In this document: positions 1,703 through 58,968 of the stretch, piece by piece
Position numbering within the stretch: position 1 is the first letter of the stretch
How the letters are laid out: each line of letters opens with the position of its first letter
Source: Levilactobacillus brevis
GTDB taxonomy: Bacteria; Bacillota; Bacilli; Lactobacillales; Lactobacillaceae
Assembly (NCBI GenBank): GCA_021383565.1
Contig: CP079699.1
Location: forward strand, 2,108,001-2,172,000
Direction: 5' to 3'
Length of the DNA: 64,000 nt
Position numbers and translations under genes: made by a program
The notes under the pieces: model-generated
Databases searched by the model: none
What the model was told of the DNA's origin: nothing
Seen by the model: only the letters and a program-made list of their open reading frames with translations

Positions 1703-1718
1703 TGTTTCACATGAAACA
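1703..1718. promoter_or_regulatory. parS-like site 1 (TGTTTCACATGAAACA)
   Basis: One mismatch to the parS consensus (central CA in place of CG). It lies intergenically, just downstream of a possible promoter (TTGACG at 1669 and TATAAG at 1694) for the secreted protein at 1801. Confidence 0.55.
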
Positions 1719-1800
1719 TTTTCTGAAGGGAGATAATCTCCCGCAATAAAACTATCTTTTTACCCCCAAACCTCGTACACTGATCTCAGGAGGGGAGTAC

Positions 1801-2631
1801 ATGAAAAAAATACATAAATGGGCCCTGGCACTCGCCATCGCTTTGCTCGCGGTGGGCGGTCACGTGACGGCACAGGCGGCCACTAAAACCAAGGCCAAGG
1901 ATTTACCGCTCTACACGACCTACGTCCGGACCAAACACGCCATGGATATCGGCGCCAAGGAGAAAACCAAGACGGGCTATAAGCCGATTCACGTGAAGAA
2001 GAATAAGTTGCTACGGGTCGACGGGATTGTCTTTTACGGTAAGTACCCGAATGCCTATACCAAGGCGACGCTGATCCTCGGGCCGATTCACTACGCGCGC
2101 TACCACCGGATTAAATACAGCAATAAGCTTATTCGTTTTAACACCGCCAACTTTACCTACGTGAAGACGTTGCGAGCCCCGATCCGGACGCAATTGCTAC
2201 GGCAGGGTAAGGGCTTCGTGATGTCTACGACCCAGTTTAACCAGCCGACCTACTCGGCGGCGCTCTACGTCACGTTGGACAATTACATTCAGACCTACAC
2301 CAAGGCTCGGATGACGCAGATTGACGACAACTGGCTGACCCGGAATGTGTACAACGACTTTGCCGAGCAGAAGCCCACGGATAGTGTGAAGATTACCAAG
2401 CTGGTGAAGAAGGGGACCAGCTACAAGATTGACTACCGAACGCCACTGAAGGGTTTTGCCGACCGTAAGATTGGTCCACATCATTATCGGCTGACGATTA
2501 AACAGGGGAGCAAGCAATCTCAGGGCTACACGCCGGTCGATGACACCTATGATACAGCCGCTAGTTGGACGAATTTCAAGGTTAACGGTCGCGCTTACTT
2601 TTCTGGGGATGCCGAGTGGGGCCTGAATTAA
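1801..2631 (+). CDS. Secreted protein of unknown function
   Basis: A 276-residue protein with a Sec signal peptide (basic start, hydrophobic core at residues 8-24, likely cleavage after the AQA of TAQAA) and a Lys/Tyr/Thr-rich mature part typical of small exported lactobacillar proteins. The start is supported by AGGAGGGG five bases upstream. No catalytic motif, membrane anchor, LPXTG or WxL motif is visible, so it is probably released or loosely wall-bound. It stands alone between the T-box of oppA and a convergent merR gene. I do not recognise a named family. Confidence 0.75.
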   Translation: MKKIHKWALALAIALLAVGGHVTAQAATKTKAKDLPLYTTYVRTKHAMDIGAKEKTKTGYKPIHVKKNKLLRVDGIVFYGKYPNAYTKATLILGPIHYARYHRIKYSNKLIRFNTANFTYVKTLRAPIRTQLLRQGKGFVMSTTQFNQPTYSAALYVTLDNYIQTYTKARMTQIDDNWLTRNVYNDFAEQKPTDSVKITKLVKKGTSYKIDYRTPLKGFADRKIGPHHYRLTIKQGSKQSQGYTPVDDTYDTAASWTNFKVNGRAYFSGDAEWGLN

Positions 2632-2738
2632 ATGGTTCGCGTGAACCATAAGATAGTTCGACCACCTCAAGCTGACGGTCACAAGAGTTTGGAACAAAAT
2701 TTCTCCAACCCTTGTGTTCCAATTTAGATAGCCGAAAC

Positions 2739-2849
2739 GTGCGCCAAAAGGCAGCCGGTTCCGCTTAAAACTGACAACCAAATCATCCAAGACCGGGATT
2801 ATTCGCTTATCAGCCTTAATGCTCACCGACTAATCGCCTTTTGGCGCAC
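2739..2849. repeat. Perfect 14-bp inverted repeat enclosing 83 bp
   Basis: GTGCGCCAAAAGGC at 2739-2752 is repeated inverted as GCCTTTTGGCGCAC at 2836-2849, followed by CTCTTTTTTA. It lies between two convergent genes. It could act as a long-loop terminator for the + strand gene or be a small mobile-like cassette. Confidence 0.6.
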
Positions 2850-2857
2850 TCTCTTTT

Positions 2858-3619
2858 TTAGCGCGCGTAGCGTTGAATAATGGCCGCTAACGTTTCGGTA
2901 GCGGTGGCCCAGCCCACCCGCTGGTTGTAGTATTGGGCGAAACGCTCATCGGCTAAATACAGTTGCGCCAGGCCGCGATGTTTTTCCGGGGTGTAATTGT
3001 TCCACGTGAAACATAGCCACTGACGATGCAGCCGATAGACTTCGTGAGCGGCCGCGCTGCCTAACTCTTGGCTGACGGTTACTGCCTTTAGCTGGGCGAT
3101 TAAGGCCGCCTCCGTTTCCTGCATGGCCTGGTAGTCGGCGGCACTTAGCGCGGCGAATTTTTGCTGGCTGGTTGCGACGGCGTCTTGGCCGTAACGTTGG
3201 CGGGCTTCGTCACCGAACTGTTGCTCGTTATCGGCGAGGGCTTGCTGTTTAAACGCGGCGAATTTTTCCGAATCTGTCATTTGGGGACCTCCAGTGCGGG
3301 CCGCTAAGGTACGGTCCAGGGTATTCAGCAAGGTCGTGAGGTGGTCGCGTTTGGCCTGAAGTTTGGTGCGTTGGGTGGCTAGAACGACCGTCTGCTCGGC
3401 GGGGGATTGGGCCATGAGTACCTGAATCTGGGCTAAACTAAAGTCGAATGCCTGAAAATAACGAATCAGTTGCAGGCGGTCCACGGCGGCTGGCGAATAT
3501 TCCCGGTAACCATTGGCCGGGTTGCGGTGGGCCGGTAAGAGACCAATTTGATCATAGTAGCGCAGCGTGCGGGGACTGACGTTGGCGAATTGGGCCAACT
3601 GTTGAATGCTGTAGGTCAT
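2858..3619 (-). CDS. MerR-family regulator with TipAS ligand domain
   Basis: 253 residues. An N-terminal MerR winged helix-turn-helix (SIQQLAQFANVSPRTLRYYD, residues about 3-70) is followed by a coiled linker (about 80-115) and a C-terminal TipAS-type domain (about 135-250). TipAS proteins bind thiopeptide-like or other hydrophobic ligands and activate their target promoters. The ATG at 3619 is chosen over an upstream GTG at 3628 because GGAGG sits eight bases before the ATG and overlaps the GTG. The target is unknown; autoregulation is common in the family. A canonical parS sequence lies inside this gene at 2998-3013. Confidence 0.88.
   Translation of the reverse strand: MTYSIQQLAQFANVSPRTLRYYDQIGLLPAHRNPANGYREYSPAAVDRLQLIRYFQAFDFSLAQIQVLMAQSPAEQTVVLATQRTKLQAKRDHLTTLLNTLDRTLAARTGGPQMTDSEKFAAFKQQALADNEQQFGDEARQRYGQDAVATSQQKFAALSAADYQAMQETEAALIAQLKAVTVSQELGSAAAHEVYRLHRQWLCFTWNNYTPEKHRGLAQLYLADERFAQYYNQRVGWATATETLAAIIQRYAR
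2998..3013. promoter_or_regulatory. Canonical parS site (TGTTCCACGTGAAACA)
   Basis: Identical to a commonly used Bacillus subtilis parS variant, with the central CG intact. It lies inside the merR/tipAS coding region. Spo0J/ParB would load here to organise the origin region. Confidence 0.75.
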
Positions 3620-3914
3620 GGCGACCACCTCCTTCTTGCTTAGAGCTTATGATAAGGGCTGACGTCACGTCAAGGTCAAGGCTTTTGGTAAAAATCAGTG
3701 GGTTAACGGTTCCGTGGCACAATTAAAGTTATGATCCCCCAAAGATCAAGGGCAAGCCCGCCACGTCGCGGTTTAGTGCGGAACGTTGATTTTGTGATTA
3801 GGGGCTAGTGTGATAAAATATAGGTATTATTTGTAACTTTTTGCTTCCCCCGTGAGTCGCTTGCGATGTGGGAAGTAAAACGAATTTTCCCAGATGAATC
3901 AGATGAGGAGCAAA

Positions 3915-5930
3915 ATGAAAAAATTATTTTCGCGAGCCAACATACCCGAGTTCTTACAGAACCGGCGTCTGCGTGGCATCGCTATTATGACGGCTGCTCT
4001 GGCCATTCTTGGAATTGTTCTGTCGTTTCTGCTGAACTGGATCTTTGGGATTGTCGTCCTAGTTCTGGTTGGCATCGCCACGCTAATGGTCTTCAACACC
4101 ATGGCGGAGATTGGCGACGACACCACGCAGTACATTTCCGATCTGTCCTTTCGGATTCAGCAGGGTGAACAAGAAGCCCTGTTGCGGATGCCACCAGGCG
4201 TGATGATCTTGGGAGATAGTGATCAGGTGGAATGGGTCAATCCCTACCTTCAGCACTATTTCGGCGATACCGATGTTTTGAGCCGGTCGATTAACGATGT
4301 CGACGCGGACTTGGCGCAGCTGATTAATACGGCTGAACCCAAGACCATGACGACCGTGAAATGGCGCGATAAACGGTTTACGTTGTTTGTGGAACCCGAT
4401 TTCCATGCCGTTTACCTCTACGACATCACGCATTACCAGTTGATTCAGGAACAATACGATAACGAAAAGATTGCTATTGGTCAGGTCTTCTTGGATAACT
4501 ACGATGAAGTTACCCAGTCGATGACCGACCAGGATATCTCTAACCTGCGAAACTACGTGACCAACGAGCTGTCGGCCTGGGTTCAGCAGTTCGATATGTA
4601 CCTGAAACAATTGGATGATGACCACTACTTCGTGCTGGCCTACGCCAAATCGTTGGCGGCCATCGAAGCCGATAAATTCAAGATTCTGGATACGATTCGA
4701 GAGACCACGTCTAAGCAAAACTTCCCGTTGACTCTAAGTATTGGGATTGCATATGGCGATCCCAACCTGAACAAGCTAGCCGACCAAGCCCAGAGTAATC
4801 TGGATTTGGCGCTGGGCCGGGGTGGGGACCAGGTCGTGGTGAAGGCCGCCGACCAGGAAGCCCGTTACTATGGTGGGAAGACCAACCCGATGGAGAAGCG
4901 GACGCGGGTCAGAGCGCGGATGATTTCCCAAGCACTACAGGAATTGATGAACGAGTCCGACCAGATCTTTGTTCAGGGGCACACGCAACCCGATATGGAT
5001 TCGCTGGGCGCCTGCCTGGGGATTCGGCGGATTGCCAAGATGAACCACAAGACCTGTTGGATCGTCTTGGATAAGGAAACGGTCCATTCCGACGTGCAAC
5101 GTTTGTTGGATAACCTGAAAGCCTATCCCGACATCGACGCGGCAATTATCTCCCCGCAGGAAGCTTTGGAAAAGGCCACCGCGCAGAGTATGTTGCTGAT
5201 GGTGGACCACTCGAAGCCGTCCATTTCCATCTCGGCGGACCTCTACCACCGCCTGGAGAACCGCGTGATGATCATTGACCATCACCGGCGGGGCGAAGAA
5301 TTCCCCGAGAACCCCCTGCTGGTCTACATCGAACCGTACGCCAGCTCGACCTGTGAGTTAATCACCGAAATGTTTGAGTACCAGTCCCAAGAGGGCGAAC
5401 CAATCAACAAGCTGGAAGCCACGGCGATGTTGACGGGGATCTTCGTGGACACCAAGCACTTCTCGTTGCGGACCGGGACCCGGACGTTTGACGCGGCCAG
5501 TTACTTGCGGTCTGCCGGAGCGGATTCTATCGAGATGCAACAGTACATGAAGGAAAATGTCGACAGCTACCTGCAACGCAACCACTTAATTGAAATGGTT
5601 GAGTTCGTGAATGAAGACATGGCCTTAATTGCGGGCGAAGAGGACCAAACCTACGATCCGGTCACGGCGGCTCAGGCGGCCGATGACCTGCTGAATATGT
5701 CCGGCGTGGACGCGTCGTTTGTCATCACCCGTCGCGCTGACGGTCGAGTCGGCATTTCCGCGCGGTCACTGGGTGAGATCAACGTCCAGCTGGTCATGGA
5801 AGACATGGGCGGTGGCGGTCATCTCTCCAATGCGGCGACCCAGATTAGTGATAAATCGGTCGCTGAGGTTAAACAGCAGTTGCTGGATATTCTGAACCCA
5901 ACCGAGGAGCCGGTTGACGCGGCTAAATAG
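3915..5930 (+). CDS. gdpP: Cyclic-di-AMP phosphodiesterase GdpP
   Basis: 671-residue membrane enzyme that hydrolyses c-di-AMP and so tunes osmolyte uptake and cell-wall stress. Order seen: two N-terminal transmembrane helices (within about 20-60), a degenerate PAS region, a degenerate GGDEF domain, then DHH and DHHA1 domains. Catalytic signatures are GHTQPDMDSLGA and MIIDHHRRG, with the C-terminal GGGGHLSNAATQ of DHHA1. The ATG at 3915 has AGGAG four bases upstream and is preferred to the in-frame ATG at 3894. It precedes rplI and dnaB as in most Firmicutes. A probable -10 (GATAAAATA, about 3811-3819) lies upstream. Confidence 0.97.
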   Translation: MKKLFSRANIPEFLQNRRLRGIAIMTAALAILGIVLSFLLNWIFGIVVLVLVGIATLMVFNTMAEIGDDTTQYISDLSFRIQQGEQEALLRMPPGVMILGDSDQVEWVNPYLQHYFGDTDVLSRSINDVDADLAQLINTAEPKTMTTVKWRDKRFTLFVEPDFHAVYLYDITHYQLIQEQYDNEKIAIGQVFLDNYDEVTQSMTDQDISNLRNYVTNELSAWVQQFDMYLKQLDDDHYFVLAYAKSLAAIEADKFKILDTIRETTSKQNFPLTLSIGIAYGDPNLNKLADQAQSNLDLALGRGGDQVVVKAADQEARYYGGKTNPMEKRTRVRARMISQALQELMNESDQIFVQGHTQPDMDSLGACLGIRRIAKMNHKTCWIVLDKETVHSDVQRLLDNLKAYPDIDAAIISPQEALEKATAQSMLLMVDHSKPSISISADLYHRLENRVMIIDHHRRGEEFPENPLLVYIEPYASSTCELITEMFEYQSQEGEPINKLEATAMLTGIFVDTKHFSLRTGTRTFDAASYLRSAGADSIEMQQYMKENVDSYLQRNHLIEMVEFVNEDMALIAGEEDQTYDPVTAAQAADDLLNMSGVDASFVITRRADGRVGISARSLGEINVQLVMEDMGGGGHLSNAATQISDKSVAEVKQQLLDILNPTEEPVDAAK

Positions 5931-6001
5931 TTAATTGCTTCTCGCTGGGTTTCGGCGTAGGATTAATAATAAGCATGAATTAAAAGTGAGGAGTGACCGA
6001 C

Positions 6002-6460
6002 GTGAAAGTCATTTTTATGAAGGATGTCCGCGGTAAGGGTAAGCGCGGCGAAATCAAGAATGTTCCTGATGGCTACGCCCAAAACTTCCTGATCAAGCGG
6101 GGATTGGCCAAGGAAGCCAATCAGGCCGCGATGAGCCAGTTGAAGGGTGAACGTAAAGCAGAGGAACGGCGCGAGGCGGAGAACTTAGCCGAAGCCCAGG
6201 ACCTGCAAAAGCACTTGGAAAACGACAAGACAGTCGTTGAGATCGTGGCAAAGGCCGGAGAAGATGGCCGTTTGTTCGGGTCTATTCCTAGTAAACAAAT
6301 CGTGCAAGCCTTGCAGAAGCAATTCGATTTGAAGATTGACAAGCGCAAGGTGGAACTCCCAGAACCGATTCGGTCGCTGGGCTACACCAACGTGCCGGTC
6401 AAGCTGCATTCCGAAGTCACCGCGAAGATTCGCGTGCACGTGGCGGCGAAGCAAAAATAA
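6002..6460 (+). CDS. rplI: 50S ribosomal protein L9
   Basis: 152 residues with the L9 signature [20 protein letters not shown] and the DGYAQNFLI segment of the N-terminal rRNA-binding domain, a long connecting helix and a C-terminal domain. It stabilises the base of the L1 stalk. The start is GTG at 6002: GAGGAG lies eight bases upstream and the protein then begins exactly like other L9 proteins; a GTG at 5993 would swallow the ribosome-binding site. It follows gdpP by 71 bases and is probably co-transcribed with it. Confidence 0.97.
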
Positions 6461-6471
6461 TGAGATTAATG

Positions 6472-6503
6472 AAGACCGTTGCGCTTGCGTGGCGGTCTTT
6501 TTT
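6472..6503 (+). terminator. rplI terminator
   Basis: Stem AAGACCG/CGGTCTT with a 14-nt loop followed by a run of six or more T. Confidence 0.85.
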
Positions 6504-6713
6504 CGTGGGAATTTTACGCGGTGGGCGTTTATCTCTGCCGGGGTGGGCAAAGTAGTGTATGATTCAAGATGAACGGTCATGGCGGGCGAGCATGAATATT
6601 TACCTGACCACCCGTTACATGGTAGAATAGATGTCTTAATGCTTGCGTTATTTTGGTAAGCGCGAGGAATTGGAATGTTGTCTAGGCACCAGTGAAGAGG
6701 TAATTAGTTAAGC

Positions 6714-8105
6714 ATGGATAATAACGTACTCACAGACCATACCCCACCACAGAACCTCGATGCCGAAAAGGCCGTCCTCGGGGCGATCTTTTTAAGTACC
6801 GATGCGTTGGTGGACGCGTTGGAATACCTAGCCCCGGAGGATTTCTACCGCCGGGAACATCAGATTATCTTTCAAGCGATGATCGACCTAAACGACCGCG
6901 ACGAAGCCATTGATGTGGTGACGATCACGGACCGATTAACGGCCAAAAATGAATTGGATGACGTCGGCGGGATTACCTACATCGCCGATTTGGCGGGCGC
7001 CGTACCCACGGCCGCCAATGCCACGTACTATGCCAAGATTGTCCAAGAAAAGGCGATCCTGCGGCGGTTGATTCAGACGGCCACCAACATCGCCACACAA
7101 GGGTACCAGCAGGACGAGGACGTTTCCGACCTGCTGGATAACGCCGAACGTGACATCATGAGTGTGGCGGAAACCCGGAATCAGTCGGGCTTCAAGCCGA
7201 TTCGCGACGTGCTGAATACCTCCTTTGAAGAGATCAATAAGCTCTCCGAACAGGGCGATATCATTACGGGGCTGTCGACGGGCTACGCCGAGCTGGACAA
7301 GATGACCACCGGGCTACATGACGACGAGTTGATGATTTTAGCCGCCCGGCCGGCCGTGGGGAAGACCGCGTTTGCCTTGAATATTGCGCAAAACGTCGGC
7401 ACCAAGACGGATAAGACGGTCGCCATCTTCAGTCTGGAAATGAGTGCGGAGTCGCTGGTCAACCGGATGTTGTGCGCGGAAGGCTCCATCGACGCCAATC
7501 ACCTGCGGACGGGGCAATTGTCCGAAGACGAATGGCAAAACTTGATTGTGGCCATGGGAAGCCTGGCCAAGGCCAGCATCTACATCGACGATACGGCCGG
7601 AAACAAGATCACCGAAATTCGGGCAAAATGTCGGCGGTTGGCGAAGGAAAAGGGTAACCTGGGGCTCATCGTCATCGACTACTTGCAGCTGATTGAAGGT
7701 ACCAACCACGAAAGTCGCCAACAAGAAGTTTCCGATATTTCGCGGCAGTTGAAGAAGCTAGCCAAGGAACTCCACGTGCCAGTCATCGCGTTGTCCCAGC
7801 TCTCACGGGGCGTGGAACAACGTCAGGACAAGCGGCCGGTGTTGTCCGATATTCGGGAATCCGGGTCAATCGAACAGGATGCTGACATCGTTTCTTTCCT
7901 CTACCGGGACGACTATTACGAGCGTGACGGTGATGAGGATGGCGGTGGCGACAACGACAGTGATCCACGTGATGAGGGCGATCAGGATGTCGGGGAAGTC
8001 GAAGTCATTATTGAGAAGAACCGGTCGGGTCCGCGGGGAACCGTCAAGTTGCTCTTCGTAAAATCATTCAATAAATTTTCATCGGTGGCCTATACGCCAG
8101 AATAA
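6714..8105 (+). CDS. dnaB: Replicative DNA helicase DnaB
   Basis: 463-residue hexameric helicase that unwinds DNA at the fork with DnaG and the clamp loader. The N-terminal DnaB domain (about 12-115) starts PPQNLDAEKAVLGAIF. The RecA-like domain carries Walker A ARPAVGKTAFAL and Walker B LIVIDYLQL, plus the conserved LSQLSRGVEQR and DIRESGSIEQDADIV motifs. A very acidic insert (YERDGDEDGGGDNDSDPRDE) precedes the last beta strands and is longer than usual. TAGAAT with an upstream TGG (about 6623-6631) is a probable extended -10 for its own promoter. In many relatives purA follows; here an accessory block does. Confidence 0.98.
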   Translation: MDNNVLTDHTPPQNLDAEKAVLGAIFLSTDALVDALEYLAPEDFYRREHQIIFQAMIDLNDRDEAIDVVTITDRLTAKNELDDVGGITYIADLAGAVPTAANATYYAKIVQEKAILRRLIQTATNIATQGYQQDEDVSDLLDNAERDIMSVAETRNQSGFKPIRDVLNTSFEEINKLSEQGDIITGLSTGYAELDKMTTGLHDDELMILAARPAVGKTAFALNIAQNVGTKTDKTVAIFSLEMSAESLVNRMLCAEGSIDANHLRTGQLSEDEWQNLIVAMGSLAKASIYIDDTAGNKITEIRAKCRRLAKEKGNLGLIVIDYLQLIEGTNHESRQQEVSDISRQLKKLAKELHVPVIALSQLSRGVEQRQDKRPVLSDIRESGSIEQDADIVSFLYRDDYYERDGDEDGGGDNDSDPRDEGDQDVGEVEVIIEKNRSGPRGTVKLLFVKSFNKFSSVAYTPE

Positions 8106-8112
8106 AAAAGTG

Positions 8113-8149
8113 AAGCTGTCGATCGGGAGACTGGTCGGCGGCTTTATTT
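8113..8149 (+). terminator. dnaB terminator
   Basis: A 12-bp stem (AAGCTGTCGATC with GGTCGGCGGCTT, using three or four G-U pairs) and a short T-rich tail. Confidence 0.7.
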
Positions 8150-8309
8150 GATCGCGGTGTGACAGGACCAAAAGGGTGAACTGGTCTAGAGAACTTGCTG
8201 GGAGATTTATGCGGATAACTTGATATGAATCAAGTTGATGTCCCGAATTAATGTGAAAATTGAAAAAATAAGCGGATAAATGGTGTTTAACCGTAAAATT
8301 CATAGGGTT

Positions 8310-9667: not shown

Positions 9668-9683
9668 TGTTTCACATGAAACA
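9668..9683. promoter_or_regulatory. parS-like site (TGTTTCACATGAAACA)
   Basis: Same sequence as the site at 1703. It lies between the IS30 right end and the stop codon of the flavoprotein gene. Confidence 0.55.
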
Positions 9684-10220
9684 TTATTTCGTTAGTGTCA
9701 GAAATTGCCGACGGAGGGCCAGACAACTTTCCGGGAGCGTCGAGCGGGCCGCCACGTCATGGGCGCCATCGGCCGTGACAATACCGGTGCCCTGAAAGTC
9801 CATCTGAAGCCAATCGCAGGAGGCGCGTACGGCATCGGCAATGCCCGTGGCCTTGCGTTCGGGTTGATCGGCACCGACGATCAAGAGATAGACGCGTTTA
9901 CCGGCGAAGGGGAAGTCGTGACTAAAGCTGTCAAACCATCGATCCATGAAGACCTTGAGTTGGCCCGTCATGCCGTACCAGTACACGGGTGTCCCCAGCA
10001 CGATATCGCTGGCTCGGGCAAAGTCCGTGCGCATGAAGGCCTCGTAGTCGTCGCTAGTGTCGCGCTGGTCGCGGTCGGTCTCCCGGTCATCTTGGACGAA
10101 ATGCAACGTGTAATCCGTGAGGTGTCGGGTGGTGTGGGGACAATCGGTCAGTAGGCGTTCACCAAGGGTCGCGGTGTTGCCGTGACGCCGAGGACTGCCG
10201 TTGATGAATAAAATGGTCAT
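9684..10220 (-). CDS. NAD(P)H-dependent flavin reductase / flavodoxin-like protein
   Basis: 178 residues of the NADPH-dependent FMN reductase superfamily. The phosphate-binding loop FINGSPRRHGNTATL is at the N-terminus and the flavin-site motif GTPVYWYGMTGQLKVFMDR sits in the middle. Such cytosolic proteins reduce quinones, azo compounds or nitro compounds. GAGGAG lies 13 bases before the ATG. It is divergent from an MFS gene, and a cre-like site (10280) lies in the shared upstream region. The substrate is unknown. Confidence 0.88.
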   Translation of the reverse strand: MTILFINGSPRRHGNTATLGERLLTDCPHTTRHLTDYTLHFVQDDRETDRDQRDTSDDYEAFMRTDFARASDIVLGTPVYWYGMTGQLKVFMDRWFDSFSHDFPFAGKRVYLLIVGADQPERKATGIADAVRASCDWLQMDFQGTGIVTADGAHDVAARSTLPESCLALRRQFLTLTK

Positions 10221-16609: not shown

Positions 16610-17227
16610 ATGTGATTAAGTTGTTGCTGTTGTATGTCTTCCATATCAACGAGAACTATCATATCATGGGGATGGGGGGTGCGCAACCCCTTTTCGAAAA
16701 AAAGTTGATTTTTATTCAAAAAATTGGTTATTGAGGGGGCTACATTTCCTGATTTACCGGGAATTAACCGGATTTTTGAAAAATAAAAATTTTTTTGAAA
16801 AAAAGTGCCATAACGGTCCAAATCGCGGTGAATGGGGAGTGGAACGCGGCTAAAAAAATATAAAACGGACATAAAGTGCTGATTCGTCTAGTACTGAATG
16901 CCATTTCCCGGGAAATACTTGTTTAACACAAGCTTAACCCCTACTGCGGTCTGAACTGAAAGAAACTTTATGATGTGTTATAATTCAAGTAGCGTTGTTT
17001 TCCCGTCGCTGGAAGTTTATCAGGACGGTCAACGCACCTTAAAAAACACGGGTCAGTGACAACGACTGATCCATTATTCCTTGACTTTAAACGATCAACA
17101 CAAAACCGTACAAAAATCGTAGTGGCCCCGTTGACGATGGTATCGTGACATCCAACGGCTGGCCTGCCGGTAATCCTGCAATTACCGGATCGGACTGTAT
17201 TTCCCTTTAAGGAGGAAATTTTTAATT
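16610..17227. other. Gene-free region: AT-rich spacer and walR promoter/leader
   Basis: 16610-16900 is AT-rich with homopolymer runs and holds nothing recognisable. A TATAAT at 16979 with CTGAAA 17 bases upstream is a plausible walR promoter. It would give a leader of about 240 nt with several hairpins, including CCGGTAAT/ATTACCGG at about 17167-17188, ending in AAGGAGG before the walR ATG. Confidence 0.5.
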
Positions 17228-17944
17228 ATGCCTAAAAAAATTCTAGTTGTCGATGACGAAAAGCCTATTACTGATATTATGAAGTTTAATTTGGAAAAAG
17301 AAGGATACGAAGTGGATGTCGCCTACGATGGCGAAGCCGCCATTCAACAGGTTGAAGACGGCAATCCAGACCTCGTCATCCTGGATTTAATGTTGCCCAA
17401 GGTCGATGGACTGGAAGTTGCCCGTGAGATTCGTAAGAAGCATGACATGCCCATTATCATGGTAACGGCCAAGGATTCCGAGCTCGACAAGGTGTTGGGC
17501 CTGGAATTAGGGGCTGACGATTACGTGACCAAGCCGTTCTCTAACCGGGAACTGGTGGCCCGGGTTAAGGCTAACTTACGCCGGCAGAACACGGCGGCCC
17601 ACGCCCAACCGGAAGAACCCGAGAACCAAGACATCGAGATTGGCGACTTAACCATCCATCCCGAGGCGTACTCCGTGTCTAAGCGGGGCGCTAACATCGA
17701 ATTAACCCACCGTGAATTTGAACTACTCCACTATTTGGCGCAACACATCGGCCAAGTCATGACCCGGGAACACTTGTTACAGACGGTCTGGGGCTATGAT
17801 TACTTCGGTGACGTTCGGACCGTGGACGTGACGGTTCGGCGCCTACGGGAAAAGATTGAAGACAGTCCTAGTCATCCTACTTGGTTGGTGACGCGCCGGG
17901 GCGTTGGTTACTATTTGCGTAACCCCGATTCTGATCAGGCTTAA
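17228..17944 (+). CDS. walR: Response regulator WalR
   Basis: 238-residue OmpR/PhoB-type regulator. The receiver domain (3-118) has Asp9-Asp10 and phospho-acceptor Asp53 in [13 protein letters not shown]; the winged-helix DNA-binding domain (about 135-232) ends with [18 protein letters not shown] and [10 protein letters not shown]. With WalK it controls peptidoglycan hydrolases and is essential in most Firmicutes. AAGGAGG lies upstream. It is first gene of the walRKHI operon; the stop is followed 47 bases later by walK. Confidence 0.98.
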
Positions 17945-17991
17945 GCTAGCGGTTTGCCGCTAAATCTCGCATTGGAGGAGTATGTGACTTC

Positions 17992-19848
17992 GTGAATAGC
18001 AAAATTAAATTTTTCCAGTCGATTCACTTTAAAATCGCGCTGGTCTTCGCGCTACTCCTATTACTAACGCTGGAGATCGTGGGTGCCGTGTTCGTCCGGC
18101 AGCTGGAACGTCAAAACTTGAACACGTTTAAGTCCCAACAAGTGGTGCAGACGTACATCGTCAACCGCTTGTCGGACGAGCTGTCGACCACGAATACCAC
18201 CAAGGCCGATAAGAAGATTAAATCGACACTCTCGGAGATCAACAATACCAATAATGCCCAGATTCGGGTTATCGACAACAAGGGGACCATTCGGGGAACC
18301 AACGAAGTCGATAATCAGGGGATCGTTGGCCAAAAGACCACCGACAATAACATTAAGAATTCGATTTATAACAACCGTGATGTGGTCCGCACCACGTACA
18401 ATTCGCAAAATAATAGTCGTTACTATACGACGATTACGCGACTAATTCGCACTCAGGGAAATAATAGCGAATTAGTCGGGGTTATTTACATGCGGTCTAG
18501 TCTGGATTCCGTCTATCAAAATATTAATCAAATCACGCTGATCTACTTCTCCGCAACGTTTGTGGCGATTATCTTGGGACTCGTGATGGCGATCATTATT
18601 TCCCGGGCAATTACCCGACCGATTGACGAAATGAAGAAGCAGACGCTACGGATTGCCCGGGGGGACTACTCCGGACACGTGCGAGTCTACGGAACCGACG
18701 AACTGGGCCAATTGGCCAGTGCCGTCAATAACCTGTCTGTCCGCGTGGAAGAGGCGCAAGAATCGACCGAATCCGAACGGCGGCGGCTAGACTCCGTGAT
18801 GTCCCACATGACCGATGGGGTTATTGCCACCGATCGGCGGGGAAATGTCACCATTATTAACGAAACGGCCACGAGTTTCTTGGATACGGATACCGACAGT
18901 GCCGTAGGAAAATCCATTCTGGATCTCTTGGCGATTCGCGACGACTATACGTTGCGTGAATTGCTGGAGGACCCGGATGATTTAGTCTTGGACTTTTCAA
19001 CCAAGGACCATGATCTCATCCTTCAAGCCTACTTCTCCCTGATTCAGCGAGAATCCGGCTTCATCTCCGGGCTGGTCTGTGTGCTCCACGATGTCACGGA
19101 ACAACAGAAGATTGATCAGGACCGGAAACAATTCGTGTCCAACGTGTCTCATGAGTTGCGGACGCCGTTGACCAGTGTCCGGGCCTACATCGAATCCCTG
19201 TCCGAAGGCGCTTGGAAGGACCCAGAGGTTGCCCCGCAATTTCTGAAGGTCACCCAGGAGGAAACGGACCGGATGATTCGGATGATCAATGACCTATTGA
19301 CCCTGTCACGGATGGATTCCGGGACGCAAAAGCTTGATTTAGAAATGGTTAACTTAAACGAACTGTTCAACTACGTGTTGGACCGGTTCGATATGATGTT
19401 GAAACAAGACGACCGGCCGGAAAAGACCTATACGATCAAGCGCGACTTCACCAAGCGCGACCTGTGGGTTGAAATTGATACCGACCGCTTTACCCAAGTG
19501 CTGGATAACTTGATGAACAATGCCATCAAGTATTCACCGGATGGGGGCGTCGTGACCTGCCGGCTGTTGGAGACCCATAATAACGTGATTCTCAGCGTGT
19601 CTGACCAAGGTTTAGGGATTCCGCGTGCGGATATTCCACGCATCTTTGACCGGTTCTACCGGGTAGATAAGGCCCGTTCCCGGGCACAGGGTGGTACAGG
19701 CCTCGGCTTGGCTATTTCCCGGGAAGTTGTGCAACTACTCGGTGGCCGAATCTGGGTCGATAGTCGTGAAGGACGGGGGTCAACGTTCTACATTTCTCTG
19801 CCTTACAAGCCGTATGAAGAGGAGGATCTTTGGGATGAAGATAACTAA
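17992..19848 (+). CDS. walK: Sensor histidine kinase WalK
   Basis: 618 residues, GTG start with GGAGGAG upstream. Order: TM1 (14-34), an extracellular sensor loop (about 36-180), TM2 (182-204), HAMP (205-258), PAS (about 265-370), the H-box FVSNVSHELRTPLTS with phospho-His387, then an HATPase domain with NLMNNAIKYS, DQGLGIP and GGTGLGLAIS. It phosphorylates WalR and is restrained by WalH and WalI in the membrane. Its end overlaps the walH start by 14 bases. Confidence 0.98.
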   Translation: MNSKIKFFQSIHFKIALVFALLLLLTLEIVGAVFVRQLERQNLNTFKSQQVVQTYIVNRLSDELSTTNTTKADKKIKSTLSEINNTNNAQIRVIDNKGTIRGTNEVDNQGIVGQKTTDNNIKNSIYNNRDVVRTTYNSQNNSRYYTTITRLIRTQGNNSELVGVIYMRSSLDSVYQNINQITLIYFSATFVAIILGLVMAIIISRAITRPIDEMKKQTLRIARGDYSGHVRVYGTDELGQLASAVNNLSVRVEEAQESTESERRRLDSVMSHMTDGVIATDRRGNVTIINETATSFLDTDTDSAVGKSILDLLAIRDDYTLRELLEDPDDLVLDFSTKDHDLILQAYFSLIQRESGFISGLVCVLHDVTEQQKIDQDRKQFVSNVSHELRTPLTSVRAYIESLSEGAWKDPEVAPQFLKVTQEETDRMIRMINDLLTLSRMDSGTQKLDLEMVNLNELFNYVLDRFDMMLKQDDRPEKTYTIKRDFTKRDLWVEIDTDRFTQVLDNLMNNAIKYSPDGGVVTCRLLETHNNVILSVSDQGLGIPRADIPRIFDRFYRVDKARSRAQGGTGLGLAISREVVQLLGGRIWVDSREGRGSTFYISLPYKPYEEEDLWDEDN

Positions 19849-32363: not shown

Positions 32364-32379
32364 TGTTTCATGTGAAACA
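32364..32379. promoter_or_regulatory. parS-like site (TGTTTCATGTGAAACA)
   Basis: One mismatch to the parS consensus, intergenic, between the pilus terminator and the CRISPR remnant. Confidence 0.55.
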
Positions 32380-35692: not shown

Positions 35693-35708
35693 TGTTTCAT
35701 GTGAAACA
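35693..35708. promoter_or_regulatory. parS-like site (TGTTTCATGTGAAACA)
   Basis: One mismatch to parS; intergenic, 14 bases after the oxidoreductase stop and before a bidirectional terminator. Confidence 0.55.
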
Positions 35709-40674: not shown

Positions 40675-40690
40675 TGTTTCATGTGAAACA
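40675..40690. promoter_or_regulatory. parS-like site (TGTTTCATGTGAAACA)
   Basis: One mismatch to parS; starts two bases after the stop codon of the surface protein gene. Confidence 0.55.
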
Positions 40691-47565: not shown

Positions 47566-47581
47566 TGTTTCACATGAAACA
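47566..47581. promoter_or_regulatory. parS-like site (TGTTTCACATGAAACA)
   Basis: One mismatch to parS, flanked by an outer CCAA/TTGG, which makes the palindrome longer. Intergenic, right after a terminator. Confidence 0.55.
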
Positions 47582-51220: not shown

Positions 51221-51236
51221 TGTTTCATGTGAAACA
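51221..51236. promoter_or_regulatory. parS-like site (TGTTTCATGTGAAACA)
   Basis: One mismatch to parS; five bases after the AraC stop codon and before the terminator of the convergent gene. Confidence 0.55.
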
Positions 51237-52323: not shown

Positions 52324-52359
52324 AAAGTTTTTTATTTCGCAAGATAGGACTGATCAAAC

Positions 52360-53330: not shown

Positions 53331-53362
53331 AAAAGCAGTCCCGCGTTCTACTCGGGACTGCT
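53331..53362 (-). terminator. MFS exporter terminator
   Basis: Minus-strand perfect 10-bp stem AGCAGTCCCG/CGGGACTGCT followed by T6. Confidence 0.92.
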
Positions 53363-53430
53363 GTGGTAAGGTGCGGCGACCTTCGGAATGCTTACGCACC
53401 GATCGCTTTCCCTTACCTTGGTTTGGCACC
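53363..53430 (-). ncRNA. Structured element before the terminator (unassigned)
   Basis: Nested stems GGTAAG/CTTACC and GTGCG/CGCAC, plus a short TGG/CCA pair, lie between the stop codon of the MFS gene and its terminator. It could be a 3' UTR structure or a small RNA of about 130 nt ending at that terminator. It matches no riboswitch that I recognise. Confidence 0.35.
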
Positions 53431-53462
53431 ATCAGCTAGTATCGCACGGGGCCGGTGGGAAG

Positions 53463-54842
53463 TCAACCTTCTTGGACGCCGCGGACTGTCATTAATTTGA
53501 TGGACACGCCGAGCGCAATAATCAGAAAGGCCAGGCACATGGCAAATCCCGCTTGAATCCCCATCTGAGGAGCGTTGGGGTGGGACGTGAAAAACTTTGT
53601 CGCAAGGTTAATCGTCGCGATAATAATTGCCGTTCCAAATGACCCGGAAATTTGCCGCAACGTGTTGAACGTCGCCACGCCATCGGCCACGAGCCGGTTG
53701 GGCAAGTGCGTCAGGGCGTGCGTTTGAATCGGAATCAGGATTAACACCAATCCCAGTTGGCGGATAGTCTGCCCCACCGTCAACATGATCACCGAAGCAT
53801 TAACGTCGATAAAGGCTTGCATGAAGGTCCCGAAACAGTCAATCAACAGCCCCGTGGTGACAATCACACGGACGGGGTAGCGGTCATACAGCCGACCACT
53901 GATGGGCGACATGACCCCCGTGAGGCATGCCCCTGGCAGTAGCGCAATTCCCGAGATAATGGGGCTCTGGTGCATGATGGACTGAATCAATAGCGGCAAT
54001 AGAATGGTGTTGCCGTACATGGTCGCCACGATCAGCGCATTGAGGCTGGTAGCGGTGGTGAACTGCCCGCTCTTAAAAATCTTGGGGTTAATCAGCGGGT
54101 TGGCACTATGTAGTTGTTGCCGAATGAATGCGGTGGTAAGCACGATCCCAATCAGGAAAGGTACCACGACAAACGGTGAGGTCAGCGCGTACTGGCCGAC
54201 ATTTGAGAAACTCCACAGCAGGCCGAGGGACCCGAAGCTCACTAGAAACAAACCGAGACGGTCCAGCGTTGGCGATTCGTTCGTCGGGACGCTGGGTAAC
54301 CGGTAATAGGCCAGAATCAGGTCGATCAGGATGAACGGCGCCACCAGAATAAACAGGTAGCGCCACGAGAAGTAAGTCAAAATGACCCCGGACAACGTGG
54401 GCCCAATAATGGGAGAAAAGTTGAAGGCAAGGCCGACAATTCCCATGACGGCCCCCTTCTTAGTGGGCGCGGCGTACCGAATGGCGAGGATATTGACCAG
54501 CGGCATCATGACACCGGAACCGGTGGCTTGAATCATGCGGCCGAGGATCAGCACCCAGAAACTCTGCGCCACACTGCCCAGGAGGGTCCCGGCCAGAAAG
54601 ATGGCGGTAAACAGGATAAATAGCCGGCGAAACGTGAATTTCTTAATCAAATAGGCACTCACGGGAATCATCATCGCGCTGACCAGCATGTAGCCGTTGC
54701 TGATCCACTGCACGGTCGATGAGTTGACGTGAAAGACGGTCATGAACGTTGGTAACGCAACGTTCATCAGGGTGGAACACAGGATACCGAAGAAAGTGCC
54801 AAGTACCATGATAAATAACGATTGCTTGATTTGCTTGGACAT
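53463..54842 (-). CDS. EmrB/QacA-type MFS drug exporter (DHA2)
   Basis: 459 residues with 12-14 predicted membrane helices. The family segments MNVALPTFMTVFHVNSSTVQWISNGYML-like (first loop), LGRMIQATGSGVMMPLVN and GPTLSGVIL (antiporter motif C) are present. It uses the proton gradient to expel drugs or toxic metabolites. AGAAGG lies before the ATG. It stands alone, convergent with the repeat field, and ends in a strong terminator. Confidence 0.9.
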   Translation of the reverse strand: MSKQIKQSLFIMVLGTFFGILCSTLMNVALPTFMTVFHVNSSTVQWISNGYMLVSAMMIPVSAYLIKKFTFRRLFILFTAIFLAGTLLGSVAQSFWVLILGRMIQATGSGVMMPLVNILAIRYAAPTKKGAVMGIVGLAFNFSPIIGPTLSGVILTYFSWRYLFILVAPFILIDLILAYYRLPSVPTNESPTLDRLGLFLVSFGSLGLLWSFSNVGQYALTSPFVVVPFLIGIVLTTAFIRQQLHSANPLINPKIFKSGQFTTATSLNALIVATMYGNTILLPLLIQSIMHQSPIISGIALLPGACLTGVMSPISGRLYDRYPVRVIVTTGLLIDCFGTFMQAFIDVNASVIMLTVGQTIRQLGLVLILIPIQTHALTHLPNRLVADGVATFNTLRQISGSFGTAIIIATINLATKFFTSHPNAPQMGIQAGFAMCLAFLIIALGVSIKLMTVRGVQEG

Positions 54843-55033
54843 TGAATGGCCTTCTCTTCTCTATTAAATTGCACAACTTCTCCAATCATACTGATAATTG
54901 AAAAGTTAGTCAATCGGTCTAGGCAACCGATGAAACGCGAATCACCGGCCAATTCGCCATTGGCCGATACGTCGAGGCGTTAGTGGTCAAATTAGTCACT
55001 TATTCATACCAGTTACGCTTTTGTGAAATATAT

Positions 55034-55047
55034 TGTAAGCGTTTATA
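55034..55047. promoter_or_regulatory. cre-like site with palindrome upstream of ribokinase
   Basis: TGTAAGCGTTTATA resembles cre and is part of a perfect 14-bp palindrome CGTTTATATAAACG (55039-55052), which might instead bind a LacI-type ribose regulator. Confidence 0.45.
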
Positions 55048-55093
55048 TAAACGGTGAATTGTGTTAATTTAGAAAGTAAAGAGGTGTCCAGGT

Positions 55094-56017
<924 letters not shown>

Positions 56018-56029
56018 AGTTAAGTAAGG

Positions 56030-56065
56030 GTTGTCCGATCAGCAATTGATTGGGCGCCTTTTTAA
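56030..56065 (+). terminator. rbsK terminator
   Basis: Imperfect stem with core CCGATCA/TGATTGG and a T5 tail. Confidence 0.65.
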
Positions 56066-56170
56066 TATCAGCCGACCGTCAGTCTGAGCAGATTGATTGC
56101 GCCCGCGTACAGGCGTCCGTATACTTAAGGATAATCATTGTTAAGCCGAAGCCAAAGGAGGCAGTTTACC

Positions 56171-56425
56171 ATGAAGAATCTACTACTCGGTGTCAGTCTG
56201 GCGGCCAATGTGGCGCTGGCCTACTTGGTGGTCGCCGATCGTGATCAATTCAAGGCCCTACAGTCCCGCGCGGATAGTGCGGTGGACCAGGTGGCAGGTA
56301 AGGCCCAGCAGTTAAAGGGGTCTCTGACCGGAGACCTCGGTGATAAGGTCAAGGGCAACCTGCGTGAGGGCCGTGGTGATGTAAAAGAAGTTATCAATGA
56401 CGTGAAGTCGGAGTTTAAAGCGTAA
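56171..56425 (+). CDS. Small CsbD-like stress protein with membrane anchor
   Basis: 84 residues from the ATG at 56171 (AAGGAGG upstream). One hydrophobic N-terminal segment (about 3-20) is followed by a charged helical tail with the Gly/Lys pattern of CsbD-type general-stress proteins (GKAQQLKGSLTGDLGDKVKG). The role is unknown. It has its own strong terminator and is probably monocistronic. Confidence 0.65.
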   Translation: MKNLLLGVSLAANVALAYLVVADRDQFKALQSRADSAVDQVAGKAQQLKGSLTGDLGDKVKGNLREGRGDVKEVINDVKSEFKA

Positions 56426-56434
56426 TTTAACAGT

Positions 56435-56471
56435 CAAACGGGTCGCGGGAAGTTTTCCCGCGGCCCGTTTG
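56435..56471 (+). terminator. Terminator of the CsbD-like gene
   Basis: Stem AAACGGGTCGCGGGAA/TTCCCGCGGCCCGTTT with a 3-nt loop. Confidence 0.85.
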
Positions 56472-56535
56472 TGCGCTGTGTGGCCGTTGATGAGTTTTTA
56501 AGTATTAACTGATTTTAATAATCAATTATTAATAA

Positions 56536-57726
56536 TTAGCCCACGTTGATGTTGGTGAAGTTATAGAGGTGCCAACCGTCCGTTAGATGCGGATTGTTGC
56601 GGGCTTTATTTGGTGGTACGCCCACGAAGCGTTTGAACTCGCGGGTCAGGTGGGCCTGGTCGGCAAAGTTTAGGATGGCTGCGATTTCCGAGAGCGGCAG
56701 GTTGGTCGTCTGGAGAATTTCAATCGCCCGGTTAATCTTGACGAGAATCTTGAACCGAGAGATCGTGACGCCGACCTCGCTGTGAAATAATGCAGATAGA
56801 TAGTGGGGAGAAATTCCCAGCTGATTGGCGAGTTGGCCCATGGTGACGTTGGTTTCGGGACCGTTCATGATGATCTGATAGGCCCGCCGTACCGGAGCGG
56901 ATAGATGGACGGCCTTGAGTTGGTGGACCCGTTGCGCCATGTCTTTGATCATGGTTTCAATGCCACTCATCACGTCGTCGTAGGTAGTCAACGTCTCCAG
57001 CGTCCGCACGTAATGGTCGTTGAGTGAATAGGCCTGATCAAAATCCATGCCGGCATGAATGGCCGCGCGCAGGGTCACCGACGTGCTGATGATGCCCCAA
57101 TTCTTGATGTTTCGCAGATTACTGCCGTCCGCGAGAATTCCGATACGCCCAGAGTTCACCAGGCCGATGAAGGCGTCGTGAACCATCGAGGGTTTGCCCA
57201 ACTCGACGGCTGTCTTCAACGCTTTTTCATAGGCGTAGCTGACGTGCGCACCCTCGTCCTCGAAGTTCACTAGAATCAGCTTGTCGTTGAACTGATTGGA
57301 GGGGATGGCCTGGTCAAAGGCGGTGGTGATGGCAGCCTCGCTCAGTGGGAGTCGCAGCAATTGCGCCAACACCAGAATCTGGTCAATGCACTGCTGCCGC
57401 GGAATCGAATAGGTACTCAGCACCTGCGGCAGATAAATGGTACGGGCGTCCGTACTGCTGGGCCGCCGACTGGTCACATCGGTGAGAAGGATGGGGCCCA
57501 AGATATAGGTGTGCTCGTCCTGAATCAGGCAGACGGAGAAGAGATTCTGACTGTGGCGAAAGACGGTGATGGCGGTCTCCCGATTGGGGATTTCATGGAA
57601 GATAGCGGTATAGGCGGCCGCCAGTAGTTTACCCTGCTTAAAGACGACTTCGGGGCGATGCTGAAAGGTCTTGAAGATGACGGCCGGCGCATTGATGGCC
57701 GCCAGATAACGGGTTACTAGACTCAC
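56536..57726 (-). CDS. AraC-family transcriptional regulator (large)
   Basis: 396 residues, GTG start with GAGGGGG upstream. The C-terminal 100 residues hold the AraC double helix-turn-helix (VTMGQLANQLGISPHYLSAL; LPLSEIAAILNFADQAHLTR). The N-terminal 270 residues form an uncharacterised sensor region of the kind seen in YSIRK-like AraC regulators of lactobacilli. Its target is not obvious; neighbours are a CsbD-like gene and a DMT carrier. A cre-like site lies upstream. Confidence 0.88.
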   Translation of the reverse strand: MSLVTRYLAAINAPAVIFKTFQHRPEVVFKQGKLLAAAYTAIFHEIPNRETAITVFRHSQNLFSVCLIQDEHTYILGPILLTDVTSRRPSSTDARTIYLPQVLSTYSIPRQQCIDQILVLAQLLRLPLSEAAITTAFDQAIPSNQFNDKLILVNFEDEGAHVSYAYEKALKTAVELGKPSMVHDAFIGLVNSGRIGILADGSNLRNIKNWGIISTSVTLRAAIHAGMDFDQAYSLNDHYVRTLETLTTYDDVMSGIETMIKDMAQRVHQLKAVHLSAPVRRAYQIIMNGPETNVTMGQLANQLGISPHYLSALFHSEVGVTISRFKILVKINRAIEILQTTNLPLSEIAAILNFADQAHLTREFKRFVGVPPNKARNNPHLTDGWHLYNFTNINVG

Positions 57727-58054
57727 GAGAACCCCCTCACTTTCGTTAAATAAAATTCAAAAAGTAGATATTTATTCAAAGACTAAGCAGAAAAGTCCGA
57801 TTATGTAAGCGCTATATTAGTTATACCGTAGCTTGCGCAGAAATACCAGTGGGGGTTGCCTCGCGTATTGACTAGCCAGAGTTCAGATGGGGAACCTGCC
57901 CCCAACCGGTGTTGCCAAATTGGCTAGCCCAAGCGAGCCACCAAGGCCGCCGGGGTTACTTTACACCGGTCACGACAGTTTTACCCGATTATCTGCAGGC
58001 ATCCGCAGTTTAGGAGGCGTATAATGAAAGGGTGAAATTTATTGAACGGGGTGA
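57727..58054. other. Intergenic region with divergent promoters
   Basis: Holds a cre-like site TGTAAGCGCTATAT (57804-57817) near the AraC promoter and a TATAAT (about 58018-58024) that may drive the DMT gene. No other feature is seen. Confidence 0.4.
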
Positions 58055-58951
58055 ATGTTTTTGCGAAAGTTAGCACCATTCTTTGTGGCGTTGGGCGCGA
58101 TTAGTTTTGGCGTCCCGGCCACACTGATGAAGATTGCCCGGAGTGAGGGTGTGGTCAACGGACCGCTATTATTCTGGTCATTTCTAAGTGCCGTGGTGAT
58201 TCTCGGCGTGATTCACATTGCGCGGCGACGGTGGCTGCGGTATCAACATACGAATTGGAAGCAGATCTTGGCGGTGATGGCCGCCGGGACGGCCTCTGGT
58301 TTTACCAATACCTTCTATATTCAATCGTTGAAATTAATTCCGGTGGCGGCCGCCGCAGTCATGCTGATGCAGGCGGTCTGGTTGTCGGTCTTGCTGGGTA
58401 GCATTATTCACAAGCGGCGACCATCGCGGCTTCAGGTCATCAGCATTGTGCTGGTCCTGATTGGGACGGTGCTGGCGGCCGGACTCTTTCCGATTACGCA
58501 GTCGCTGTCGTTGTGGGGCCTGTTTCTGGCCTTTCTGGCGGCCTGCGCGTATGCCTGCACGATTCAGTTTACCGCGATGCTGGGGAACAACTTGGACCCG
58601 ATGAGTAAGACGTGGTTGCTGTGTGTGGGGGCTTTCCTGCTGATTTCGGTCGCTTGGGGACCACAGATTGTCTCGGCACCGGTGACGTTTGATACCGTTA
58701 AATGGGCGTTTTGGATTGCCATCTTCTCCATGGTCTTCCCGCTGGTGGCCTACTCAATCTTCATGCAGTACCTAGACCTCGGAATTGGGCCAATTCTGTC
58801 GTCACTGGAATTGCCCGCCTCCATCACGATTGCCTTTCTGGTCTTAGGCGAACGAGTGGATTGGCTTCAGGTTGTCGGCGTGCTCATCATCATTGGCGCC
58901 GTGATTCTCCCGAACGTGTGGGGGATGCAGCGTCAGAATCAATTACGCTAA
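58055..58951 (+). CDS. DMT-superfamily (EamA) transporter
   Basis: 298 residues with ten predicted membrane helices in two EamA repeats (about 5-135 and 150-290; the second has LGERVDWLQVVGVLIIIGAV). It is a small-molecule permease or exporter of unknown substrate. GGGGTGA precedes the ATG. It ends next to a parS-like site and a terminator. Confidence 0.88.
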   Translation: MFLRKLAPFFVALGAISFGVPATLMKIARSEGVVNGPLLFWSFLSAVVILGVIHIARRRWLRYQHTNWKQILAVMAAGTASGFTNTFYIQSLKLIPVAAAAVMLMQAVWLSVLLGSIIHKRRPSRLQVISIVLVLIGTVLAAGLFPITQSLSLWGLFLAFLAACAYACTIQFTAMLGNNLDPMSKTWLLCVGAFLLISVAWGPQIVSAPVTFDTVKWAFWIAIFSMVFPLVAYSIFMQYLDLGIGPILSSLELPASITIAFLVLGERVDWLQVVGVLIIIGAVILPNVWGMQRQNQLR

Positions 58952-58952
58952 T

Positions 58953-58968
58953 TGTTTCATGTGAAACA
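58953..58968. promoter_or_regulatory. parS-like site (TGTTTCATGTGAAACA)
   Basis: One mismatch to parS, two bases after the DMT stop codon and directly before the terminator. Confidence 0.55.

What the first reader, a model, noticed from the sequence alone, without database searches (positions are those of the whole stretch)
1703..58968. Nine parS-like 16-mers in 64 kb, eight with a central CA/TG instead of CG
Sites at 1703, 9668 and 47566 read TGTTTCACATGAAACA; sites at 32364, 35693, 40675, 51221 and 58953 read the reverse complement TGTTTCATGTGAAACA; 2998 is the exact B. subtilis-type parS. All eight variants are intergenic, and most lie within a few bases of a stop codon or terminator. An unbiased 16-mer would not occur once by chance here. 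B. subtilis carries about ten sites per chromosome, so this is unusually dense. They may be a relaxed parS set for Spo0J/ParB loading of SMC, or a repeated element bound by another protein.
Basis: partly seen in the sequence, partly recalled or inferred. Interest (0 to 1): 0.75.

Follow-up and report, generated by a model that had tools for sequence, protein, structure and literature searches.

The report
Off-consensus parS sites around oriC
The window comes from the replication-origin region of a Lactobacillaceae chromosome and carries chromosome-segregation docking sites (parS) that mostly differ from the textbook palindrome by one central base; this form is common in the genus, swaps with the textbook form between species, and almost never has both halves altered.

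Summary
Eight TGTTTCACATGAAACA / TGTTTCATGTGAAACA sites and one TGTTCCACGTGAAACA lie at the stated places (expected by chance 0.00). The whole genome has 13 CA/TG, 4 CG and 0 TA sites plus two TGTTCCACGTGAAACA. All 19 lie between -111 and +127 kb of dnaA, where GC skew flips.

They are best read as parS sites. ParB has parS-type specificity residues, Noc NBS-type ones. Orthologous sites in related species switch between CG, CA and TG. In public genomes 32 of 116 stretches holding the CA 16-mer also carry a parB-family gene; 99 of 101 control proteins match at most 3. Two clostridial contigs have 5 and 6 CA/TG sites beside parB.

Notable is a half-site rule: one half may end in T instead of C, almost never both (1 TA of 172 sites in 15 genus genomes). 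Some genera are CA-rich, others CG-dominated, with the same ParB recognition motif. The density is not exceptional. ParB binding and SMC loading are untested. A variant of a known element; moderate interest.

The parts
1703..1718 (.). parS-like site, CA core (TGTTTCACATGAAACA); genome C1:2109703, +22.2 kb from dnaA
   Evidence: intergenic, between divergent genes
2998..3013 (.). canonical-core parS (TGTTCCACGTGAAACA) inside a MerR/TipAS-family regulator gene (2858-3628, -)
   Evidence: aligned copies keep the CG core in G003 and G005
9668..9683 (.). parS-like site, CA core; directly abuts the stop of the FMN reductase gene on the - strand (9684-10220)
   Evidence: aligned copy is CG in G003 and the same CA form in G002 and G006
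32364..32379 (.). parS-like site, TG core, between convergent genes, 101 bases after a sortase gene
35693..35708 (.). parS-like site, TG core, 13 bases after a stop, convergent gap
40675..40690 (.). parS-like site, TG core, 2 bases after a stop
47566..47581 (.). parS-like site, CA core, convergent gap
51221..51236 (.). parS-like site, TG core, 4 bases after the stop of an AraC-family gene, convergent gap
58953..58968 (.). parS-like site, TG core, 1 base after the stop of an EamA-transporter gene
   Evidence: same form at the aligned place in G002, G005 and G006

Best explanation
The sites are working chromosomal parS sites for the cell's Spo0J-type ParB. A ParB dimer reads the 16-mer as two half-sites, one canonical (GTTTCAC) and one that ends in T (GTTTCAT). 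One canonical half plus a near-canonical half is enough to nucleate ParB, so the last base of one half can drift in non-coding DNA, while a site with both halves altered (TA core) is nearly excluded. Inside genes the codon (for example CGT, Arg) helps hold the core at CG. Shown here: clustering round oriC, the half-site rule, change of form at orthologous places, neighbourhood with parB in other bacteria, parS-type residues in ParB. Inferred: binding, CTP-clamp loading, spreading, SMC recruitment.
For: (1) 17 of 17 TGTTTCAYRTGAAACA sites of the genome lie in 238 kb round dnaA at the GC-skew switch, rough scan p 5e-16. (2) The core changes at orthologous positions. Of 64 sites read in six other species, 24 align through to G000: 16 with the same core, 6 with another, 2 facing no intact site. 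Behind one thioesterase gene 23 species have 11 TG, 8 CA, 4 CG, 0 TA, with at least 7 changes on a gene tree in which 10 of 23 inner branches are well supported. (3) 1 TA of 172 sites in 15 genus genomes; 26 expected if the halves varied independently, binomial 1.6e-11, ignoring shared ancestry. (4) 32 of 116 public stretches with the CA 16-mer carry a parB-family match; of 101 controls, mnmG-like 26, mnmE-like 15 (usual parAB neighbours, recalled), the other 99 at most 3, median 0. (5) In four other genera the CA/TG sites examined flank dnaA (G092, G264, G258, G070). (6) ParB has R and G at the two conserved parS-type positions (Caulobacter R173, G201); Noc has Q, K, K, R. (7) In P. aeruginosa single heptamers GTTTCAC or GTTCCAC bind ParB in vivo (passages of PMC10419367).
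Against: No binding data. In P. aeruginosa, sites with altered cores (parS5 TGTTCTACATGGAACA, parS10 TGTTCCACAGGGAACA) bind ParB more weakly, and the authors call an intact CACGTG core important (passages of PMC4368675). In the class sample the CG core dominates: CA core in 72 of 329 genomes, at most four per genome outside the family; CG core in 250 of 329. In genus g38 four of four exact sites examined in one genome (G178, which has eight) are CG although intergenic, while ParB of four other g38 genomes has the same recognition motif, so ParB tolerance alone does not explain the lineage difference. 40 of 64 sites in the six species do not align through to G000, so sites also come and go. parA/parB lie about 325 kb from dnaA, not beside the sites.
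Confidence: 0.87

Rival explanations
1. The CA/TG sites are binding sites of Noc, the ParB paralogue that acts in nucleoid occlusion, rather than of ParB.
For: A Noc gene lies beside parA/parB, and Noc and ParB recognise related sites (PMC7383237, passages).
Against: The sites have G at half-site position 1 and A at position 6, the two parS-defining bases; the cell's Noc has the NBS-type residues (read). A separate NBS-like motif is enriched (20 against 3 control matches at up to 3 mismatches) and ranges over 0.22-2.26 Mb of the contig. The CA/TG sites change into CG parS at orthologous places.
Confidence: 0.04
2. The CA/TG sites are decayed or drifting parS relics with no present role, kept by chance or slow loss.
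For: Single-base difference from the consensus by a transition; sites turn over (40 of 64 do not align through, 2 face a broken site in G000; no site within 30 bases of the thioesterase stop in G004, G021 and G026).
Against: Where kept, the outer bases are kept while the flanks diverge; TA core is nearly absent; forms move back and forth across the tree; 13 of 19 sites in this genome are of this form, not a small tail.
Confidence: 0.06
3. CACGTG is avoided because of a restriction-modification system or CpG mutation, which pushes the core to CA/TG.
For: CACGTG is a palindromic hexamer of the kind that restriction enzymes use (recalled).
Against: CACGTG is not depleted in the 260-kb region (81 seen, 75.9 expected), and neither is CG (19110 against 17132).
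Confidence: 0.02
4. An interspersed repeat or transcription-terminator element unrelated to ParB.
For: Intergenic position, several sites right behind stop codons.
Against: Flanks of the sites share no evident sequence beyond the 16 bp (by eye); confined to the ori region; parB neighbourhood in other bacteria.
Confidence: 0.01

Closest known systems
B. subtilis-type chromosomal parS (TGTTNCACGTGAAACA), bound by Spo0J/ParB
   Same: Length, outer bases, oriC-centred clustering, a ParB with the parS-type specificity residues in the same genome
   Different: Core is CA or TG in 13 of 19 sites here, so the site is asymmetric; the set surrounds dnaA while parA/parB lie about 325 kb away
Pseudomonas aeruginosa parS5 and parS10 (altered cores) and half-parS heptamers
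   Same: Known examples of ParB sites with a broken CACGTG core, and of binding to one arm alone (PMC4368675 and PMC10419367, passages)
   Different: There they are weak minority sites with further mismatches; here a single-base asymmetric form is the commonest form next to oriC
Noc binding site NBS (TATTTCCCGGGAAATA, letters recalled)
   Same: Related 16-bp site of a ParB paralogue
   Different: Bases 1 and 6 of the half-site differ; a separate NBS-like motif is present in this genome

Membership tests
chromosomal parS (Spo0J/ParB type) | 16-bp inverted repeat of two GTTNCAC-type half-sites | tested here: met
   one half exact, the other with C to T at its last base
chromosomal parS (Spo0J/ParB type) | exact consensus with symmetric CACGTG core | tested here: not met
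   13 of 19 sites in the genome have CA or TG at the centre; hence filed as a variant, not as the canonical form
chromosomal parS (Spo0J/ParB type) | clustered round oriC | tested here: met
   all 19 sites between -111 and +127 kb of dnaA; GC skew changes sign there
chromosomal parS (Spo0J/ParB type) | genome encodes ParB with parS-specificity residues (R173, G201 of Caulobacter) | tested here: met
   residues matched by motif, read from the sequence
chromosomal parS (Spo0J/ParB type) | bound by ParB, with CTP-dependent loading and spreading | not testable with these tools
   needs ChIP-seq or biochemistry
chromosomal parS (Spo0J/ParB type) | recruits SMC | not testable with these tools
   smc was not searched for either
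Noc binding site (NBS) | A at half-site position 1 and C at position 6 | tested here: not met
   sites have G and A there; criteria from PMC7383237, passages
interspersed repeat element | sequence shared beyond the palindrome and spread over the genome | tested here: not met
   flanks unrelated by eye; sites confined to the ori region

The most novel reading that the evidence does not exclude
The asymmetry itself is used: sites with one canonical and one weakened half-site form a tuned or one-sided loading platform, giving ParB clamps (and through them SMC) a lower or oriented entry rate, and lineages switch between fewer symmetric and more asymmetric sites as a way of setting ParB/SMC flux. 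The near-absence of TA and the genus-level split between CA-rich and CG-dominated sets would follow. No polarity relative to oriC was seen in this genome (left arm 1 CA:2 TG, right arm 3 CA:7 TG), which speaks against the oriented version but not the tuned one.
Probability: 0.15. Interest if true: 0.7.

Novelty: new variant of a known kind. Interest (0 to 1): 0.45.

Why it matters
A search with the symmetric CACGTG consensus would miss most sites here (13 of 19 in this genome; 133 of 172 in 15 genus genomes). The half-site rule gives a natural test of how much of parS a ParB dimer needs to close its CTP clamp: one exact half plus one with T at its last base appears to be tolerated, two altered halves appear not to be. 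The split between CA-rich and CG-dominated genera with the same ParB recognition motif is an open question that ChIP-seq and in vitro loading could settle.

Tried and rejected
ParB residue as cause: I suspected Gln after the conserved Gly (SMGQAR; His in B. subtilis and Caulobacter, recalled). It is present in 108 of the 110 Lactobacillaceae ParB proteins read (110 of 140 genomes with a match), in CG-dominated genera too, so it does not separate them. A column scan between 17 CA-rich and 11 CG-rich genomes (43 of the 110 had three or more exact 16-mer sites) gave no HTH contact residue; the top columns were residues 20, 23 and 76, outside the DNA-binding domain, and 209 (Lys in 7 of 11 CG-rich, in none of 17 CA-rich). 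All are confounded by relatedness, four of the 11 being one genus, so 209 is only a lead.

Restriction avoidance and CpG loss: rejected, no depletion of CACGTG or CG. Coding constraint as the whole explanation: rejected. In this genome CA/TG sites are 13 of 13 intergenic with ORFs of at least 120 aa (12 of 13 at 80 aa) and CG sites are 3 of 6 coding (Fisher p 0.021). But g38 keeps CG at intergenic sites, and in other genera 2 of 21 CA/TG sites fall in called ORFs. The coding site 60 bp from the thioesterase site has CG wherever it was read except possibly G004, where a TG-core site aligns to that place at 69% identity. Polarity relative to oriC: none. Excess of CA/TG beyond neutral drift: 13:3 among intergenic sites here does not differ from 2:1 (p 0.29). 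Convergent-gap preference (9 of 15 or 11 of 16 intergenic sites, p 0.001 to 2e-5 by ORF cut-off) may only reflect avoidance of promoters. Literature: exact-letter searches for the CA/TG 16-mer, its 14-mer core and degenerate spellings found no paper in the held library; topic searches are. Passages of PMC8357415, PMC4333373, PMC5815017 and PMC7280372 gave no CA/TG-core site. The 2007 parS survey by Livny and colleagues is not held and may already show such sites.
Full report
What is there. The window is C1:2108001-2172000 of a 2.68-Mb genome. Genome-wide there are 17 exact TGTTTCAYRTGAAACA sites (13 CA/TG, 4 CG, no TA) and two TGTTCCACGTGAAACA. Beyond these, two sites have 2 mismatches (one 3 kb from the dnaA start, one at 770 kb) and ten have 3, two of them inside the 238-kb block; the reversed control pattern gives 5. 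dnaA is at C1:2087499-2088836, GC skew changes sign at the 10-kb bin that holds it, and the 19 sites lie at -110.8 to +127.3 kb from its start. The window covers about +20 to +84 kb. Genes for ParB, ParA and Noc lie together at about 1.762 Mb, some 325 kb away.

Which organism. The genus has 35 genomes in the held set; 34 of 35 carry the motif, the exception being a 72% complete genome. Of 19 named records compared, Levilactobacillus hammesii aligns to the ori region mostly at about 80-86%, a Lactobacillus sp. HBUAS51381 at 84-88%, L. namurensis at 67-71%, and L. tongjiangensis only over short pieces. The organism is most likely a Levilactobacillus; no marker tree was made.

Why parS. Four lines point to ParB. 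First, position: all sites are round oriC. Second, change of form at orthologous places. In 49 stretches from six other species (all listed sites of G001-G005, 6 of 10 of G006) 64 sites were read. 24 align through to G000: 16 with the same core, 6 with another, 2 facing no intact site; the other 40 do not align through, so the set also turns over. Examples: G000 TG versus CG in G002 and G006 (C1:2214813), CA versus CG in G003 (2117668), CG versus CA in G004 (2192004), TG versus CA in G001 (2075256). The site just behind a thioesterase gene (C1:2075256) was followed through the genus. Of 34 genomes with a match, 30 gave loci, 26 of these held the gene end, and 23 of 26 have the site within 30 bases of the stop: 11 TG, 8 CA, 4 CG. 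The pattern used to find it allowed variation at positions 1, 5, 8, 9, 12 and 16 only; positions 1 and 5 vary in four species each, 8 and 9 as described, 12 and 16 not at all, while the flanks differ widely. The gene tree needs at least 7 core changes; 10 of its 23 inner branches are well supported. A second site 60 bp away, inside the neighbouring gene, has CG wherever read, except possibly in G004. Third, neighbourhood. In 257 billion bases a 16-mer is expected about 120 times by chance on both strands (my arithmetic), so part of these are chance hits; even so 32 of 116 have a parB-family match at 1e-8 (36-69% identity). Of 101 control proteins from the ori region (first 300 residues) the median matches 0 stretches. 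Only two exceed 3: 26 and 15, which I recognise by eye as MnmG and MnmE (sequence, not searched). L056 (Lachnospiraceae) has five CA sites within 0.7 kb upstream of parB, and L112 (Clostridia) six CA/TG sites within 0.5 kb on the 3' side of the parB match. Fourth, protein: the ParB helix reads GKSRPYIANY...SMGQAR, the Noc helix GKSQGFVANKLRLLK...TERHGR, which by the published key are parS and NBS types (PMC7383237, outline and passages).

The half-site rule. In the 15 genus genomes that share there are 172 sites: 132 CA/TG, 39 CG and, by subtraction, 1 TA (in G011). With T in 39% of halves, 26 TA sites are expected if halves vary independently; the sites are related by descent, so the probability is only indicative. 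In the 116 collection stretches the 12-base frame GTTTCA-NN-TGAAAC has 76 CA, 78 TG, 50 CG, 1 TA and 1 GG; these were chosen for the CA form, so only the scarcity of TA is informative. The simplest reading is that ParB needs one exact GTTTCAC half and tolerates GTTTCAT in the other. That fits reported binding of P. aeruginosa ParB to single heptamers (PMC10419367, passages) and is in tension with the weaker binding of its altered-core sites, which carry other mismatches too (PMC4368675, passages).

How widespread. In the family sample CA occurs in 151 of 301 genomes (29 of 40 genera) and CG in 150 of 301 (31 of 40). Genera differ: g1 (this one), g14, g23 and g26 are mostly CA; g38 and g16 mostly CG. 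Single species break the pattern of their genus (G018 in g1: 2 CA, 8 CG; G119 in g20: 0 CA, 8 CG). These counts use the exact 16-mer and miss sites with other outer bases: G070 and G102 of g37 show one CA site each by 16-mer but four CA and one CG by 14-mer core. In the class sample (329 genomes, 3 of the family) the CA core occurs in 72 and the CG core in 250; the reversed CA control occurs in about 10. In G092, G264, G258 and G070, one genome each of four other genera, the CA/TG sites examined lie round dnaA; in G067 and G178 no dnaA lay in the stretches fetched. ParB recognition residues do not explain the split.

Gene context. With simple ORF calling (coding share 0.74 to 0.80), 15 or 16 of 19 sites are intergenic, 7 lie within 5 bases of a stop codon, and gaps between convergent genes are over-represented. 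Intergenic parS is normal: nine of ten C. glutamicum sites are intergenic (PMC7083940, passages). In this genome the core form follows context (CA/TG 13 of 13 intergenic at the 120-aa cut-off, CG 3 of 6); in the four other CA-carrying genera and G067, 19 of 21 CA/TG sites are intergenic.

Verdict. It is a variant of a known element. Worth a specialist's time are the half-site rule and the unexplained CA/CG split between lineages. No paper with the CA/TG letters was found in the held library, but the older parS survey could not be read, so I do not claim that it is unreported.

Noticed in passing
genome G000 C1:1761504-1763927 versus C1:2087499 (outside the window): The noc-parA-parB cluster lies about 325 kb from dnaA, and the parS set stays with dnaA, not with parB.
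   Followed up: partly
L362 (G000 C1:769001-773000): A stretch about 98.7% identical (1,656 and 243 bases) to the thioesterase locus of genus member G003 sits 1.3 Mb from oriC; the identity ends at base 14 of its parS site, which reads TGTTTCACGTGAAAAC, so this apparently imported parS is not intact away from oriC. The break may simply be the recombination end.
   Followed up: partly
genome G000 C1:2124751-2127728 (window 16751-19728): Four NBS-like (Noc-type) sites within 3 kb: one at 1, two at 2 and one at 3 mismatches.
   Followed up: no
window 1261-1580: Looks like a T-box leader on the - strand (T-box-like motif by eye), beside the first parS-like site; not searched in Rfam.
   Followed up: no
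L056:311-1014 and L112:2304-2783: Clostridial contigs with parS arrays made wholly of CA/TG-core sites (five and six) beside parB.
   Followed up: partly
L062, L069, L076 and Psychrobacter records L049, L080, L084, L095, L111, L120: CA-core 16-mers in Campylobacterota-type, unclassified and six Psychrobacter contigs without a parB match in the held stretch; their role was not examined.
   Followed up: no
ParB of genera g9, g10 and g15 (L215-L217, L236-L239, L243, L244): The Gly at the position of Caulobacter G201 reads Ala in these ParB proteins (MAQAR or NAQAR), although the paper read in passages calls it absolutely conserved.
   Followed up: no
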